Part shown: positions 17,630 to 64,000 of the stretch, in pieces
Layout: the number at the start of each line of letters is the position of its first letter
Numbering within the stretch: position 1 is the stretch's first letter
Assembly: GCA_035591015.1 (NCBI GenBank)
Contig: JAXIUW010229173.1
Span: 49,586 to 113,585 of the forward strand
DNA from: Cephalothrix simula
Lineage: Eukaryota > Nemertea > Palaeonemertea > Archinemertea > Cephalotrichidae
Direction: 5' to 3'
Length of the DNA stretch: 64,000 nucleotides
Program-made: the position numbers and the translations under genes
The notes under the pieces: generated by a model
Told to the model about the DNA's origin: nothing
Database searches by the model: none
What the model saw: the letters and a program-made list of their open reading frames with translations, nothing else

Positions 17630-18100
17630 CTACTGGCGGATACAGTGCAAAACCATTTCATAGTTGCGACCCCACTCATTTTCGCAATGAGACCGACGAA
17701 CACTGTCAGTGTAAGCTCTCTCAATTGTGCGTTTGGCCGATCTTTGATTGTTGGAACAATACTCGACCATTTCAAAGTTATTCCCCCATTCGCTTTTGCA
17801 GTTTAGAGTGATGTGATCTTGAGGCGCATTACTCAGGTGTTGTTTTGCGTTCGATTGGTTATTGATACAGTAGAGAACCATTTCATAATTTTTGCCCCAC
17901 TCATTTTCACAGTTGCCACGGATGAGACCAGAGTGCGCAGAAATTTCACGTTTCGCTTGACGCTGGTTTTTGGTACAGTAGGCAACCATATCATAGTTCG
18001 CCCCCCACTCTGATTCACATTGTTGAACAATTTCATCGGCAACCGCCGGTTGCCAAACCATCAATAGTAAGGCGAAAGTCGTTAGTTTTAGAACGCGCAT
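17630..18100 (-). CDS. Exported protein with four cysteine-tryptophan repeats
   Basis: Not a named family. A signal peptide (residues 1-21, ending AVA) precedes four copies of a motif C-x3-W-G-x-N-[YF]-[DE]-M-V-x-[YH]-C beginning at residues 28, 64, 101 and 139, so the period is 36-38 residues. Each copy has two cysteines exactly 13 residues apart, probably a disulfide in the periplasm, and the first three are followed by a basic helix (NQRxAKR-like). The eight cysteines are all in the repeats. The protein ends three residues after the last Cys. The repeats are also visible as similar DNA, so the array arose by internal duplication. Function unknown. Confidence 0.7.
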   Translation of the reverse strand: MRVLKLTTFALLLMVWQPAVADEIVQQCESEWGANYDMVAYCTKNQRQAKREISAHSGLIRGNCENEWGKNYEMVLYCINNQSNAKQHLSNAPQDHITLNCKSEWGNNFEMVEYCSNNQRSAKRTIERAYTDSVRRSHCENEWGRNYEMVLHCIRQ

Positions 18101-40121: not shown

Positions 40122-40286
40122 CAAATAAAGCCCTTATCGGGATGCTCGCTCTTATCTTGCCGAGGCGATAATCACCGAATAGAGCCCTGTCGAGAGGCGG
40201 TGAATCTTGCTTGTTTTGCCGAGACAATAAGTTCAAATAAAGCACTTTCAGAGGTAAGAGTCTTATTTTGTCTTACCGAAGCAGCC
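40122..40286. repeat. Three degenerate direct repeats of about 54-58 bases
   Basis: Units begin at 40122, 40176 and 40234 with CAAATAAAGC, CGAATAGAGC and CAAATAAAGC. Each also contains a CTTATCTTGCCGAGG-like block (CTTATCTTGCCGAGG, CTTGTTTTGCCGAGA, CTTATTTTGTCTTACCGA). They lie at the start of the gene-free stretch 39974-41200; ORFs that can be drawn across them look accidental. Confidence 0.6.
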
Positions 40287-40330
40287 TCCTCAAAATTGAA
40301 GAAACTCCTTGTTACCGGCAGTGAGGCTTC

Positions 40331-40388
40331 GTGAGGGGGGCTAGTCCCCCTCACCCTCACCCAAGTGGGGAGCTGCTGCGCTCCCCAC
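40331..40388. repeat. Two perfect 9-bp hairpins in series
   Basis: Hairpin one: arms GTGAGGGGG and CCCCCTCAC with a 6-base loop, 40331-40354. Hairpin two: arms GTGGGGAGC and GCTCCCCAC with loop TGCTGC, 40365-40388. The two stems are ten bases apart and GC-rich against an AT-richer background. There is no T-run, so this is not a simple terminator. It resembles REP-type elements. Confidence 0.7.
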
Positions 40389-40637
40389 ACCCCTAGCAAC
40401 GGTGCTTATTCTTTGCCTTTAGGTATAGTACATGGCTCACTCTATTAGCTACAGAAGTTAGCTAACATGGGCTTTAAGCTGGCTGGCATTTTTAGTAATC
40501 CTCTTAATAGTCTAGTCGCTTTTTTTACCTTTAGCACAATCCTATAGGTAGGGGCTAAAGTTTGTTGATTGGCTATAGGCGCAAAGCAATTCTTTTGCTT
40601 CCTAAAACCCCTTTCGGTCTAAGTATTAGCAATATTT

Positions 40638-40821
40638 GACTAAGCTAGGCTGTATAACATCAAGCCTTTTTGGCCGAAGGCGTGAGCCTTCGGCCAAGTC
40701 TGAGAGTGCAGAGAGCTGGCTCTCTGCCGGGGTTGTTAGGGGTGGAACCCCTAACCCTAAACACTTTGCCAGATAACCTTGCTTACTTACATGAGTGCAA
40801 GGCAATTCTCTATTGCCTTGC
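40638..40821 (+). repeat. Multi-hairpin repeat element, copy 1
   Basis: Four stems lie in a row. A (40670-40697): TTGGCCGAAGGC / GCCTTCGGCCAA. B (40708-40727): GCAGAGAGC / GCTCTCTGC. C (40735-40755): GTTAGGGGT / ACCCCTAAC. F (40797-40821): GCAAGGCAAT / ATTGCCTTGC with loop TCTCT. The block A-C is flanked by imperfect inverted ends (left about 40638-40660, right about 40768-40791). The rest of the gene-free region 40430-41200 has only a weak hairpin at 41043-41070. Confidence 0.8.
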
Positions 40822-41200
40822 CGGTGCAGAGCCTCTAACCCTAGCCATTTTGATGACTTGCTTTGCCTTCACGACCGAGCGAGCGAGCAATATCTAACTT
40901 CAAAGAAAGTGGCTAGTTGAAGCCCTTAATGCGCTCGCACACCTACAACAAGCTCGCATCAACACCTCAGTAACGTCAAGACAAACTTCTAGCGCAACGC
41001 AGAACTGACTGCGACCGACAAAAAAATCAAAAAATAAAGGACAGAGGGGATACGAAAAACGCACCCCTCTACTAGGCAGTGTAGATGCGGGCAACAACCC
41101 TGTTCCCCTATGCACCTACCTGTGTATGGACGGAAATAATTGGTGAGATTTTTCCTACGTTACCCGGTAAAAACCGATGGGCACGAGGGGTATGTATAAC

Positions 41201-53575: not shown

Positions 53576-54577
53576 TTAGCGAAGCGGTATTCCGTATTGC
53601 AAACCTCCATTAGTCCACAAGTTGTTATATGCTCTAGCTAAGCCTAGCTTAGTGCCTTCACCAAGATTACGACTGTATATCTCACCATAATTACCAACTT
53701 CGGCAATAATTTTGGCGCACCAATCATTATTAAGCCCAAGGTCTTCACCAAAAGTTCCTGATATACCTAGCAATCGTTGTATTTTGGGGTCATCACTACT
53801 CTTCATACTATTAACATTGCTTTGCGTAATGCCCAGTTCTTCGGCGTTAACCGTACAATAGTAAGACCACCGCACAACATCGCCCCATTGGCTGTCTCCC
53901 TGACGAACGGCGGGGCCTAAAGGTTCTTTAGAAATCAGCTCAGGCAAAATCATGTGCGCGGCAGAATCCCGAAAAGTTGTACGCATTGAGGCCAAGCCTG
54001 ATACATCTGTTGTATACACATCGCAACGACCAGTCTCATAGGCACGTACTACCTCGGATGATTTTTCATAAATAACTGGCACAAACTGCATGTTATTCTT
54101 GCGGAAATAATCAGCCAAATTAAGCTCTGTAGTTGTACCCGTATTAAGGCAGAAAGTTGCTCCATCCAGCTCTAGGGCAGAGGTAACACCTAGGTCTTTT
54201 CTAACCATAAAGCCTTGCCCATCGTAATAATTGACAGCTACAAAGTTCAGACCTAGCTTGGCATCACGGCTGGCAGTATAAGTTGTATTGCGATAGAGAA
54301 CATCTATCTCACCCGATTGTAAGGCCGGAAAACGCTCTTTACCACTAGTTGGCTGAAACTTGACATCAATGCCAACGGCCGCTCCCAATCCGTTGCAAAA
54401 ATCAACGTCAAAACCACTATAAGCACCTCGTGAATCAACCGTAGAGAAGCCCGCTAAACCTCCCGACACTCCGCATTTAATGTAACCTCTATCACGAACA
54501 TCTTCTAAAGTGCCGGCATGCACCGCCACAGGCAAAAGAATAATGGACACAGTTACTGCTACTTTTTTGAATAACAT
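53576..54577 (-). CDS. aapJ: General L-amino-acid ABC transporter binding protein, third copy
   Basis: A periplasmic receptor for the AapQMP permease. The ATG at 54577, preceded by AAGGAA, gives 333 residues and a typical signal peptide (MLFKKVAVTVSIILLPVAVHA, then G-T-L). The frame can be read to 54646 but that would bury the signal. Family features are GYIKCGVSGGLAGFSTVD, GFDVDFCNGLGAAVG, FPALQSGEIDVLYRNTT and the LPELISKEPLGPAVR segment. It is closest to the first copy (55701-56702), with the second more diverged. It lies directly upstream of aapQ. Confidence 0.93.
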   Translation of the reverse strand: MLFKKVAVTVSIILLPVAVHAGTLEDVRDRGYIKCGVSGGLAGFSTVDSRGAYSGFDVDFCNGLGAAVGIDVKFQPTSGKERFPALQSGEIDVLYRNTTYTASRDAKLGLNFVAVNYYDGQGFMVRKDLGVTSALELDGATFCLNTGTTTELNLADYFRKNNMQFVPVIYEKSSEVVRAYETGRCDVYTTDVSGLASMRTTFRDSAAHMILPELISKEPLGPAVRQGDSQWGDVVRWSYYCTVNAEELGITQSNVNSMKSSDDPKIQRLLGISGTFGEDLGLNNDWCAKIIAEVGNYGEIYSRNLGEGTKLGLARAYNNLWTNGGLQYGIPLR

Positions 54578-54608
54578 GTATTTTCCTTTTTTATATTGAT
54601 TTAGCCGG

Positions 54609-55622
54609 CTATCTAACCGGTGGGCTATATTGCAAGCCGCCCTCATACCATTGAGCGTTCAAACCACGCTCTATTTTTAAGTCTGTATCTAAGCCCAAAT
54701 TACGCTCAAAAATCTCTCCATAATTACCAACCTTGGCAATTTCTCTAACGCACCAATCATTGGGCAAGTTTAGTTCCTTCCCTGAATTTCCTGCTGTGCC
54801 TAACAGTCGTTTAATACGAGGGTCATTACTATCAGCGGCCAGCTTATTGACATTGGCCTGTGTAATACCCAATTCTTCAGCTTCAACAGTGCAATAGTAC
54901 GCCCAACGAACAATATCAGCCCATTCATCATCACCCTCTTTAACAACTGGACCAAGCGGCTCCTTAGAGATAAGCTCTGGCAAAATAACATGCTTTGTCG
55001 GGTCTTTTAAGGTTGTGCGCATCCCGGCAACATTGGATGCGTCTGAGGTTAAGGCATCGCACTCGCCCTGCTCATAGGCTGGCACCATTTCTCCATCACT
55101 AGGAAAATACTTGGCATTGAGATTCATCCGATAGAGCTTAAAATAGTCTTCTAAGTTCAGTGCGGTGGTCGTGGCCTCTAACACGCAAATACTCACGCCA
55201 TCTAAATCACGCACTGAAGATGCCCCAATGCTCTCTTTAACCATAAACCCCTGCCCGTCATAATAGTTTACCCCCACAAAGGTGAGGTCTAAGTCTGCAT
55301 CACGACTAGAGGTGTGCGTGGTTGATCTATACAATACATCAATCTTTTTGTCTCTTATCAGCGCCAGACGAGCTCTGCTACTGGCTTCAACAAATTCTAA
55401 TTCAACACCCAGCACAGCAGCTAATCCACGACAAAAATCAACATCAAAGCCAATGCGCTCACCCTGACTGTTTTCTTCAGAAAACCCCGTTACCAAATTC
55501 GCAACACCACAGTTAAGAGAACCTCTTTTGAGTACTTCCTGCAAAGTTCCGGCTTGAATTATTTGAACCGAAACCACAGAACAACCCAGCAGAATCAGAA
55601 ATAATCTCACTGCAGCATTCAT
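54609..55622 (-). CDS. aapJ: General L-amino-acid ABC transporter binding protein, second (diverged) copy
   Basis: A further AapJ-type receptor, 337 residues from the ATG at 55622; the frame extends to 55697 but the ATG gives the signal peptide MNAAVRLFLILLGCSVVSVQIIQA. The FDVDFCRGLAAVLG, YYDGQGFMVKES and LPELISKEPLGPVVKEGDDEW motifs are retained. Ligand-contact stretches differ: SSRARLALIRDKKIDVLYRSTTHT replaces FPALQSGEIDVLYRNTTYT, and CVLEATTTALNLEDYF replaces CLNTGTTTELNLADYF. This suggests a shifted ligand preference. Neighbour copies lie on both sides. Confidence 0.9.
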   Translation of the reverse strand: MNAAVRLFLILLGCSVVSVQIIQAGTLQEVLKRGSLNCGVANLVTGFSEENSQGERIGFDVDFCRGLAAVLGVELEFVEASSRARLALIRDKKIDVLYRSTTHTSSRDADLDLTFVGVNYYDGQGFMVKESIGASSVRDLDGVSICVLEATTTALNLEDYFKLYRMNLNAKYFPSDGEMVPAYEQGECDALTSDASNVAGMRTTLKDPTKHVILPELISKEPLGPVVKEGDDEWADIVRWAYYCTVEAEELGITQANVNKLAADSNDPRIKRLLGTAGNSGKELNLPNDWCVREIAKVGNYGEIFERNLGLDTDLKIERGLNAQWYEGGLQYSPPVR

Positions 55623-55648
55623 AAAACTCACCAACAGTCCATAGACAA

Positions 55649-55675
55649 GAGAGCAGAGGCTCACCCCCTGCTCTC
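55649..55675. terminator. 8-bp stem-loop between the first and second aapJ genes
   Basis: GAGAGCAG and CTGCTCTC pair around an 11-base loop, 25 bases after the stop of the first copy. It is T-flanked on the plus strand only; for the transcribed minus strand it can act as a pause, stabiliser or weak terminator. Confidence 0.5.
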
Positions 55676-55700
55676 TCTTTTTAAGCAGCACTAACAATAA

Positions 55701-56702
55701 TTATCGGACAGGAATACCATATTGAAGGCCACCATCAGTCCACAGAGCGTTTACACCTCTTGCGATGTTCAACGGAGTATCAGTCCCTAGATTGCGAGCA
55801 AATATTTCGCCGTAGTTTCCGGTTTCAGCAATAATCTTTGCACACCAGTCATTGCCTATGCCAAGATCTGCACCAAAAGTTCCTGACTTACCTAGCAAGC
55901 GCTGAACTTTTGGATCTTCGCTATTGCTAGCTTGGCTTTTGACATTGCGTTGGGTAATGCCTAACTCTTCGGCATTGACCGTGCAGTAATAAGCCCAGCG
56001 TACAATATCGGCCCACACGTCATCACCTTGACGCACAGCCGGCCCAAGAGGCTCTTTTGAGATGATTTCTGGCAGAATTATATGATCCTCAGGGTTCTTA
56101 AACTGGCTTCGCTGAGCAGCTAAGCCTGATGCGTCAGTAGTATAAACGTCACAGCGATTAGACTCATAAGCTCGTTTAACTTCTTCGGTTTTCTCGTAAA
56201 GCACCGGGGTATAGTCCATATCATGCTTACGGAAGTAATCAGCCAAATTGAGCTCGGTGGTTGTGCCAGTATTAACACAAACTGTGGCTCCGTTAAGCTC
56301 TAACGCAGAGGTTACTCCTAAAGACTTTCTGACCATAAAGCCCTGACCGTCATAGTAATTGACCGCCACGAAGTCTAACCCTAACTTAATGTCACGGCTA
56401 GCTGTGTAGGTTGTATTACGATAGAGAAGATCCGTCTCACCCGACTGTAATGCCGGAAAACGATCCTTAGCCGAAGTCGGCAAGTATTTAATGTCTACAC
56501 CTACTGCGGCAGCTACACCACGACAAAAGTCAACGTCAAAACCTTTGTAGTCGCCGCTTGAATCAACGGATGAAAACCCCGCCAATCCTTGCGAAATGCC
56601 ACACTTCACGAAACCATTACTCTTAACATCTTCTAAGGTTCCCGCATAGGCAAAAGAGGCTGAACAGCCCAAGATAATCAGACATGTAGCTAATCTAAGC
56701 AT
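55701..56702 (-). CDS. aapJ: General L-amino-acid ABC transporter binding protein, first copy
   Basis: 333 residues with signal peptide (MLRLATCLIILGCSASFAYA, then GTL). Promoter-proximal gene of the operon: AAGGAGAT lies six bases before the ATG, the strongest ribosome site of the window. The sequence is the standard AapJ pattern (GFVKCGISQGLAGFSSVD, FKGFDVDFCRGVAAAVG-like, FPALQSGETDLLYRNTTYTASRD, CVNTGTTTELNLADYF, LPEIISKEPLGPAVRQGDD). Together with the third copy it forms a close pair. A stem-loop follows its stop, which would favour a higher protein level than for the permeases. Confidence 0.94.
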   Translation of the reverse strand: MLRLATCLIILGCSASFAYAGTLEDVKSNGFVKCGISQGLAGFSSVDSSGDYKGFDVDFCRGVAAAVGVDIKYLPTSAKDRFPALQSGETDLLYRNTTYTASRDIKLGLDFVAVNYYDGQGFMVRKSLGVTSALELNGATVCVNTGTTTELNLADYFRKHDMDYTPVLYEKTEEVKRAYESNRCDVYTTDASGLAAQRSQFKNPEDHIILPEIISKEPLGPAVRQGDDVWADIVRWAYYCTVNAEELGITQRNVKSQASNSEDPKVQRLLGKSGTFGADLGIGNDWCAKIIAETGNYGEIFARNLGTDTPLNIARGVNALWTDGGLQYGIPVR

Positions 56703-63390: not shown

Positions 63391-63544
63391 TAACTAAGGG
63401 TTAGGCTAAGCAAGATTAAGTTTGAAGTATTTTAGGTTAAGGACTTCGCCCTTAACAATCCCAGCAAAGAGCCAGCTCTCTGCACTCTCGGGATAGTTCT
63501 TTGGGGCTGGATAAGCCCCAACGGGCTTACGCACCCGAATTAAA
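63391..63544 (-). repeat. Multi-hairpin repeat element, copy 2 (inverted)
   Basis: Read on the minus strand it has stem A' (TTGGGGCT / AGCCCCAA, 63501-63521), stem B (63464-63483, GCAGAGAGC / GCTCTTTGC with a G-T wobble) and stem C (63436-63456, GTTAAGGGC / GTCCTTAAC with a G-T wobble). 120 bases (63425-63544) recur at 63881-64000 with two differences. It starts right after the hyuA stop. Confidence 0.75.
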
Positions 63545-63643
63545 TAAATCACATCTCGGCTTACTCGCAAGGCAAAATGCTTTTGTATAATAAGTAGACT
63601 CATAAAACCCCTGTTAATCCAAATGTTGGTATACGGCAATGCC

Positions 63644-63800
63644 TAACTAAGTAAGGTTATATAATGCCAAGCCCTTTTGGCCGAAGGCATGAGCCTTCGG
63701 CCAAGTCCGGGAGTGCAGAGGGCATTGCCCTCTGCCGGGGGGTTGGGGGCGGCGCCCCCAAGTAATAAACACTTTGGTATATAACCTTGCTTACTTACAT
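63644..63800 (+). repeat. Multi-hairpin repeat element, copy 3
   Basis: Same order as copy 1. A (63677-63704) TTGGCCGAAGGC / GCCTTCGGCCAA. B (63715-63735) GCAGAGGGC / GCCCTCTGC. C (63743-63761) TTGGGGGC / GCCCCCAA. The ends are inverted repeats: left TAAGTAAGGTTATATAATG (63648-63666), right, at 63776-63798, its imperfect reverse complement (GGTATATAACC then TTGCTTACTTA). The full element is about 157 bases. Confidence 0.8.
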
Positions 63801-63815
63801 GGTTAGACTAGTTAA

Positions 63816-64000
63816 GGGCTTTGCCCAGCAAGATGATAGAGAATCATCTTGCTCGGTTAATTTAAGCAAGGTTGCTTTAGAAGTGTTTTAGGTTAAGGAC
63901 TTCGCCCTTAACAATCCCAGCAGAGAGCCAGCTCTCTGCACTCTCGGGATAGTTCTTTGGGGCTGGATAAGCCCCAACGGGCTTACGCACCCGAATTAAA
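63816..64000 (-). repeat. Multi-hairpin repeat element, copy 4 (inverted, cut by window end)
   Basis: On the minus strand it carries A', B (canonical GCAGAGAGC / GCTCTCTGC), C as in copy 2, and stem F at 63827-63853 (AGCAAGATGAT / ATCATCTTGCT with loop TCTCT), plus a small GGGC / GCCC hairpin at 63816-63826. Stem F is homologous to the one in copy 1. Confidence 0.75.

What the first reader, a model, noticed from the sequence alone, without database searches (positions are those of the whole stretch)
40638..40821. Structured, mobile-looking multi-hairpin repeat family with compensatory base changes
Four copies are visible (40638-40821 plus; 63391-63544 minus; 63644-63800 plus; 63816-64000 minus). 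Each is a series of stems A-B-C, and copies 1 and 4 add stem F. Stems differ between copies but stay paired. In B, an A-T pair in copy 1 becomes G-C in copy 3. In C, two pairs change together between copies 1 and 3. In F, three pairs change together (GCAAGGCAAT versus GCAAGATGAT) while the loop TCTCT and stem base are fixed. In copy 2 the two unpaired-looking changes are G-U wobbles only on one strand, giving a sense orientation. The ends form inverted repeats of about 20 bases, like a MITE. This points to selection on folded RNA or DNA structure in a non-autonomous element with no transposase here.
Basis: partly seen in the sequence, partly recalled or inferred. Interest (0 to 1): 0.85.

Follow-up and report, generated by a model that had tools for sequence, protein, structure and literature searches.

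The report
Hairpin-array mobile repeats in SAR324 relative
A deep-branching relative of the SAR324 bacteria carries dozens of intergenic repeats built from strings of hairpins whose paired bases change together, and the same central hairpin pair sits in related bacteria inside small jumping elements whose ends resemble those of a transposase-coding element in the same genomes.

Summary
In detail: the four copies, their hairpins and the reported paired changes are real. The family is large here: at least 77 BLAST matches on 17 contigs, and 104 box-F module matches in 33 fetched stretches. Two arm types, often back to back and reading outward, lie mostly at gene 3-prime ends. The central double hairpin (B-C) is 98% paired over 109 distinct copies, with double-sided changes at 16 of 18 pairs. 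It occurs in 11 of 52 SAR324-phylum genomes and 1 of 50 others. G-U mismatches outnumber A-C 39 to 5 on the outward strand, which points to selection on one folded strand. In three relatives, 14 short elements (177-240 bp) have 13-base terminal repeats and YTAR target duplications (8 exact); 10 of the 14 carry the core. Three 1.47 kb insertion sequences with an IS1182-like transposase have closely similar ends. Here neither those ends nor that transposase family was found; arms carry an extra hairpin module (F) instead. Best reading: an elaborated, probably immobile branch of a MITE family with a conserved single-strand fold.

The parts
40328..40394 (-). Possible diverged left arm of the copy 1 element (two hairpins, GTGAGGGGG.. 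and GTGGGGAGC..)
   Evidence: Model R2 matches L136:1914-1980 minus, 31 bits, E 9e-5; hairpins at 40331-40354 and 40365-40388
40601..40666 (+). Type I leader (centre side) of copy 1
   Evidence: Profile I5; TATAAT or TATAAC in 19 of 22 leaders
40670..40697 (+). Hairpin A, copy 1
40702..40758 (+). B-C double-hairpin core, copy 1
   Evidence: R2, L136:2288-2344, 71 bits; B 40708-40727, C 40735-40755
40759..40824 (+). Box plus hairpin F (40797-40821), copy 1; part of the unit seen in tandem at 84 bp elsewhere
63433..63489 (-). B-C core, copy 2 (type II arm; contains the G-U pairs)
   Evidence: R2, L137:2019-2075, 59 bits
63501..63585 (-). Type II hairpin D (63501-63521) and leader (63546-63585), copy 2
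63603..63673 (+). Type I leader, copy 3; with the copy 2 leader it forms the centre of a divergent two-armed element
63677..63704 (+). Hairpin A, copy 3
63709..63765 (+). B-C core, copy 3
   Evidence: R2, L137:2295-2351, 61 bits
63767..63801 (+). Box of copy 3, without a following F
63824..63879 (-). Hairpin F (63827-63853) and box, copy 4
63889..63945 (-). B-C core, copy 4
   Evidence: R2, L137:2475-2531, 64 bits
63957..64000 (-). Hairpin D (63957-63977) of copy 4, cut by the contig end

Best explanation
The copies belong to a family of non-autonomous (MITE-class) repeats of one SAR324 clade. The conserved heart is an outward-facing double hairpin (B-C). A common unit is two arms back to back around a centre, each arm reading outward. 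In three relatives the unit lies between 13-base terminal repeats and was inserted into YTAR sites, most likely by the DDE transposase of an IS with closely similar ends. In this genome the arms have no recognisable ends of that kind, carry hairpin A or D and an F unit that is tandemly repeated in places, and look immobile. They were reshuffled at hairpin tips and are found mostly at gene 3-prime ends. The stems stay paired because the outward strand is folded as a single strand, most likely RNA that runs outward from the centre. Shown: copies, covariation, strand asymmetry of the core, ends and duplications in relatives, a transposase with similar ends. Inferred: that this transposase moved the elements, that own and relatives' elements share descent beyond the core, that the folded strand is RNA, that it starts in the centre, and any effect on neighbouring transcripts.
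For: Copy number: at least 77 matches on 17 of 580 contigs, 104 box-F matches. Covariation: B-C core 98.6% of 432 cells paired and 13 of 18 pairs changed on both sides (A4); 98.1% of 1894 cells and 16 of 18 pairs over 109 distinct copies, 0 of 500 shuffles (A5); type I arms 97.3% of 911 cells, 11 of 46 pairs; F 912 of 940 cells, 0 of 500 shuffles. G-U 39 against A-C 5 on the outward strand, own 21:2 and relatives 18:3; unique column events 20:5, p 0.004. Clade: R1, trained on own arms only, hits 8 of 52 SAR324-phylum genomes; R2 11 of 52 and 1 of 50 others; own 16S is 87% identical to two R2-positive genomes. Divergent arms also in relatives. TIR pattern: 48 sites, all in 3 of 10 genomes, reversed control 0. 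Of 14 two-ended elements, TSD exact in 8 (one of them with a 2-base offset), 3 of 4 bases in 5, 2 of 4 in 1; 10 of the 14 hold a core match. Three ISs with similar ends, TSD exact in 2; IS1182/IS5-type transposase. Gene flanks 41 three-prime against 17 five-prime.
Against: In this genome no end with up to 1 mismatch to the TIR was found in 34 stretches (8 with 2 mismatches, reversed control 2), no secure TSD, and PF01609 and PF01797 were absent from the held assembly, so mobility here is by analogy. Only the B-C stretch is shared by sequence; own leaders do not match relatives. The TIR occurs in 3 of the 10 genomes tested, so in the others the vehicle is unknown; 4 of the 14 TIR elements have no good core match. 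The G-U excess by unique events is p 0.065 in own and 0.057 in relatives taken alone; hairpin F alone shows no clear asymmetry (15:10). In type I arms the number of further pair types is below the shuffles (29 against 34.1). No sigma-70 consensus at the leaders. No expression data.
Confidence: 0.55

Rival explanations
1. The paired changes come from DNA-level copying: template switching and gene conversion inside palindromes turn imperfect hairpins into perfect ones, and no folded RNA is selected.
For: F has few discrete stem types (left arms 38, 26, 11, 7 and 5 of 94) and no clear strand asymmetry (15:10); left and right arms of different types are joined in one copy (L141:2362); arms are fused or swapped at hairpin B (L134:2434, L117:2219, L132:1617, L142).
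Against: In the core G-U intermediates are frequent and nearly confined to one strand (39:5), which templated correction would not give; unpaired columns, read by eye, show no matching C-to-T excess.
Confidence: 0.2
2. Host-serving 3-prime structures: arrays kept at gene ends as transcript stabilisers or read-through barriers, not mobile.
For: 41 of 58 flanking ORFs point their 3-prime end at the element, 28 of the 41 within 100 bp (mechanical ORFs of 120 aa or more); strong folds.
Against: Transcripts from adjacent genes read the nearest arm in the inward sense, the opposite of the favoured strand; TIRs and target duplications in relatives; copy 1 itself lies far from its flanking ORFs (628 and 918 bp); a 3-prime bias is expected for any tolerated insertion.
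Confidence: 0.15
3. Chance convergence: unrelated GC-rich hairpin repeats that merely resemble one another in own and related genomes.
For: Only about 55 bases are shared; leaders and ends differ.
Against: A sequence-only profile of G007 elements finds own cores at E down to 6e-7; R1, trained on own arms only, finds relatives at E down to 1e-12; R2 hits 11 of 52 against 1 of 50 genomes, four of them (G006, G011, G054, G055) without having given a training sequence.
Confidence: 0.1

Closest known systems
BOX elements of Streptococcus pneumoniae (PMC3049150, passages read)
   Same: Composite and modular: end modules and a middle module in variable tandem number; predicted stem-loops when transcribed; many copies; the paper's introduction counts such small repeats as likely MITEs.
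   Different: Here the tandem module (C'-box-F, 84 bp) lies at the outer end of an arm; arms often stand back to back; stems covary; another phylum. No BOX sequence was compared.
MITEs thought to be driven by an IS in trans (for example Nezha, named in PMC3049150)
   Same: In relatives: short, TIRs, TSD, ends like those of an IS in the same genome.
   Different: GC-rich hairpin bodies with a conserved double hairpin; in this genome no such ends, no secure TSD and no IS partner found.
Correia/NEMIS elements of Neisseria (PMC2229807, passages read)
   Same: MITE-class with putative divergent internal promoters and RNA stem-loops.
   Different: About 105-155 bp with one main stem formed by the ends (the latter recalled); here strings of three or more separate hairpins per arm.
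REP/BIME elements with RAYT (PMC2817692 and PMC3733652, listing and abstract start only)
   Same: Extragenic palindromes in alternating orientation.
   Different: No Y1 transposase in the held assembly; units far longer.
Foldback transposons (recalled, no call)
   Same: Long inverted arms with tandem internal repeats.
   Different: Eukaryotic; arms here are two different types.

Membership tests
MITE (IS-driven), for the elements of relatives G007-G009 | Terminal inverted repeats | tested here: met
   AAGGGCTGTGATT..AATCACAGCCCTT; 48 sites, reversed control 0; 14 two-ended elements counted
MITE (IS-driven), for the elements of relatives G007-G009 | Target-site duplication | tested here: met
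   YTAR-like; 8 of 14 exact, 5 with 3 of 4 bases, 1 with 2
MITE (IS-driven), for the elements of relatives G007-G009 | Autonomous IS with matching ends | tested here: met
   Three ISs of 1466-1484 bp in G008 and G009, ends within 0-3 mismatches of the pattern, among 30 of 38 PF01609 matches whose loci were held; activity not testable
MITE (IS-driven), for the elements of relatives G007-G009 | Carries the B-C core | tested here: met
   10 of 14 at E 0.001 or better; L209, L212, L220 weak, L211 none
MITE, for the elements of this genome | Terminal inverted repeats | tested here: not met
   Relatives' TIR absent at up to 1 mismatch; proposed leader-box repeat p 0.059; outer ends variable
MITE, for the elements of this genome | Target-site duplication | tested here: inconclusive
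   One 9-base direct repeat around a composite copy, right flank itself repetitive
MITE, for the elements of this genome | Transposase in trans in the genome | tested here: not met
   PF01609 and PF01797: 0 in the held assembly, which may be incomplete; other transposase families not searched
BOX element | Sequence homology to boxA/B/C | not tested
   Only architecture compared
REP/RAYT | Y1 transposase | tested here: not met
   0 matches to PF01797 in the held assembly
Known RNA family (Rfam 15) | Match at gathering score | tested here: not met
   0 in the window; one sub-threshold match, E 0.18, in 9 loci
IS1182 family (for the partner transposase) | NCBIfam NF033551 cut-off | tested here: inconclusive
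   248-257 bits against 270; NF033581 (IS5) 149-155 against 140

The most novel reading that the evidence does not exclude
The B-C double hairpin is itself the functional unit: an undescribed structured RNA of a SAR324 clade, transcribed outward from the centre of two-armed elements, that different mobile repeats carry as cargo (IS1182-type MITEs in some genomes, amplified hairpin arrays in this one) and that acts on the 3-prime ends of neighbouring genes.
Probability: 0.22. Interest if true: 0.72.

Novelty: new variant of a known kind. Interest (0 to 1): 0.5.

Why it matters
It gives a case in bacteria where the fold of a dispersed repeat is visible as covariation over about a hundred copies and several genomes, with a strand preference in the core. 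That makes it possible to ask directly whether MITE hairpins are selected as RNA or kept by palindrome copying. It also suggests a route by which a plain MITE core could grow into BOX-like modular arrays.

Tried and rejected
Rfam: nothing at gathering score. Y1 transposase and DDE_Tnp_1 in the held own assembly: none. Closed multiloop with leader pairing to box: not kept (p 0.059). Stem between the B-C linker and the box found by RNAalifold in type I: not kept; no double-sided change in 6 pairs and not predicted in type II. Exact 28-base pattern in viral contigs: 0. Plasmid blastn with window 40600-40900 and with a G007 element: no match. F in 52 SAR324-phylum genomes: 0 (one exact pattern). 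Homology of leaders to relatives' centres, which I had put in my notes as likely: one alignment at p 0.02 in 56 comparisons and no significant profile hit, so not claimed. My note that elements lie mostly between convergent genes is corrected (9 convergent, 10 co-directional, 2 divergent). The first G-U count (F 12:4, other 36:26) ran stems on into flanks and was replaced.

Selections: A2 took 20 of 35 type I and A3 19 of 32 type II matches, by eye for length. A4 took 16 of 20 relative loci; L159, L160, L169 and L174 were dropped as unclear by eye; so R2 had training sequence from seven of the genomes it later hit. One search used the best 92 of 113 matches, 89 distinct. One search scored 94 of 104 module matches, at least two of these doubtful; some of the 104 are box without F. 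One search tested 10 of the 11 R2-positive genomes (G054 left out). One search tested 50 of the 80 loci. From three listed pairs were not counted: a contig start (L210), a copy with an N-run (L189), one judged chance (L220:862). From pairs without the transposase or without matching flanks were judged chance.

Full report
WHAT IS THERE. The four copies are real and placed as described. Two arm types exist. Type I: leader, hairpin A (TTGGCCGAAGGC stem), B, C, a box, F. Type II: another leader, hairpin D, B, C, box, F. Copies 1 and 3 are type I plus; copies 2 and 4 are type II minus. Copies 2 and 3 stand back to back, reading outward; copies 3 and 4 run towards each other, and copy 4 is cut by the contig end. 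Copy 1 may have a diverged partner arm at 40328-40394 on minus (31 bits).

COPY NUMBER. BLAST with copy 1 gives 77 matches on 17 of 580 contigs of the held assembly, a lower bound by the tool's own words. An element lies within about 700 bases of 16 of the 34 ends of these contigs (counted by hand). The 33 stretches fetched hold 104 box-F module matches; L006 has three in tandem at 84 bp. Flanking ORFs of 120 aa or more: 41 with the 3-prime end towards the element (28 of them within 100 bp) and 17 with the 5-prime end; 9 convergent, 10 co-directional and 2 divergent pairs.

STRUCTURE. Type I arms: 97.3% of 911 cells paired, 11 of 46 pairs with changes on both sides, 0 of 500 shuffles for both; the count of further pair types is lower than in the shuffles (RNAalifold). 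F: 94 scored, loop TCTCT in 88, 912 of 940 cells paired, shuffle maximum 842. B-C core with relatives: 98.1% of 1894 cells, 16 of 18 pairs, 0 of 500 shuffles; partners slid by 1-3 columns give 44-53%. That alignment was fitted to the model; the MAFFT alignment A4 gives 98.6% and 13 of 18, on a structure read from these sequences. Related copies inflate such counts. Strand test: 39 G-U against 5 A-C cells on the outward strand (and 18 other unpaired cells), 21:2 in own and 18:3 in relatives; counting each column and pair once, 20:5, p 0.004, while own alone gives p 0.065 and relatives alone 0.057. F alone is 15:10. G-T pairs also form in single-stranded DNA, so RNA is the likelier but not the only reading.

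RELATIVES. The best named FtsH hit is a SAR324 cluster bacterium at 58% (top hit, unnamed, 59%). The one 16S match lies on contig C326, which carries elements; it is 87% identical to G011 and G012, both R2-positive, and 65-84% to the other near-full-length matches; 38 of 52 genomes, most R2-positive ones among them, gave no 16S match. The 52 genomes are the phylum of the genome of L046, titled SAR324 cluster bacterium. Model R1, trained on own arms, hits 8 of 52; R2 11 of 52 and 1 of 50 genomes of other groups (one match in an Acidobacteriota MAG). A sequence-only profile of G007 elements finds own cores at E down to 6e-7, but own leaders find nothing in the relatives' loci. F was not found in the 52 genomes by exact pattern or in the relatives' loci by profile.

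MOBILITY. In G007, G008 and G009, 14 elements of 177-240 bp end in AAGGGCTGTGATT and AATCACAGCCCTT or close forms. The flanking four bases are YTAR-like and duplicated: 8 of 14 exact (L180 with a 2-base offset), 5 with three of four bases, 1 with two. Ten of the 14 hold a core match at E 0.001 or better, six of these with an exact duplication; L209, L212 and L220 match weakly and L211 not at all. Three ISs of 1466-1484 bp have ends within 0-3 mismatches of the pattern, two with exact duplications; they were found among 30 held loci of 38 PF01609 matches. They encode 457-462 aa proteins with DUF772 and DDE_Tnp_1, close to the IS1182 and IS5 models, 67-70% identical to the first. That IS5-type elements favour CTAG/YTAR targets is recalled. 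In the own assembly neither PF01609 nor PF01797 was found, and 34 own stretches hold no such end at up to 1 mismatch, against 33 in the relatives' loci (those loci were partly fetched by that end).

REARRANGEMENT. Some arms have hairpin B replaced by an inverted F-box unit, or a type I arm fused at B to an inverted type II arm; one F joins halves of two types. Palindromes acting as points of strand exchange would explain the composite arrays and part of the discrete stem types.

MECHANISM, COMMITTED. A MITE family with an outward-folding core, diversified and probably immobile here; likelihood about 0.55. The outward transcript, its start in the centre (TATAAT or TATAAC in 19 of 22 type I leaders; no full sigma-70 consensus at the leaders) and an effect on neighbours are inferred.

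LITERATURE. Searches listed no paper whose title or abstract start describes this family or such repeats in SAR324. I read passages of PMC3049150 and PMC2229807 and saw the rest as listings and abstract starts. Subscription papers and preprints are not held, so absence from print is not shown.

Noticed in passing
window about 40200-40600; L132:1932-2490; L135:1500-1910: A second repeat of some hundred bases (hairpins GTGAGGGGG.. and GTGGGGAGC..) precedes type I arms at these three places; its hairpin pair weakly matches the B-C model on the other strand (window copy and L135).
   Followed up: partly
L132:1514 and 1932: A 9-base direct repeat flanks one composite copy that ends a short ORF; may be a target duplication or chance.
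   Followed up: partly
window 53576-56702: Three neighbouring ORFs share repeated DNA (D1); the one tested resembles an amino-acid ABC transporter binding protein, below the family cut-off: probable tandem paralogues.
   Followed up: no
window 17639-18019: Four 48-base repeats spaced 108-114 bases inside a 156 aa ORF.
   Followed up: no
G064:C392:98-155 (L183): One B-C match (E 7e-5) near a contig end in an Acidobacteriota MAG; could be contamination or transfer.
   Followed up: no
G000: The held assembly is 8.6 Mb in 580 contigs with one 16S match, but the matches to copy 1 lie on 17 contigs totalling about 1.3 Mb; it may hold more than one organism.
   Followed up: no
about L117:2370-2590 and L123:1605-1825: A near-identical stretch of about 200 bases forms the centre between arms in two places (by eye).
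   Followed up: no
L236:756-811 and L234:2893-2972: Weak B-C matches (26 and 20 bits) overlap or lie next to two of the three ISs, as if IS and short element had inserted side by side.
   Followed up: no
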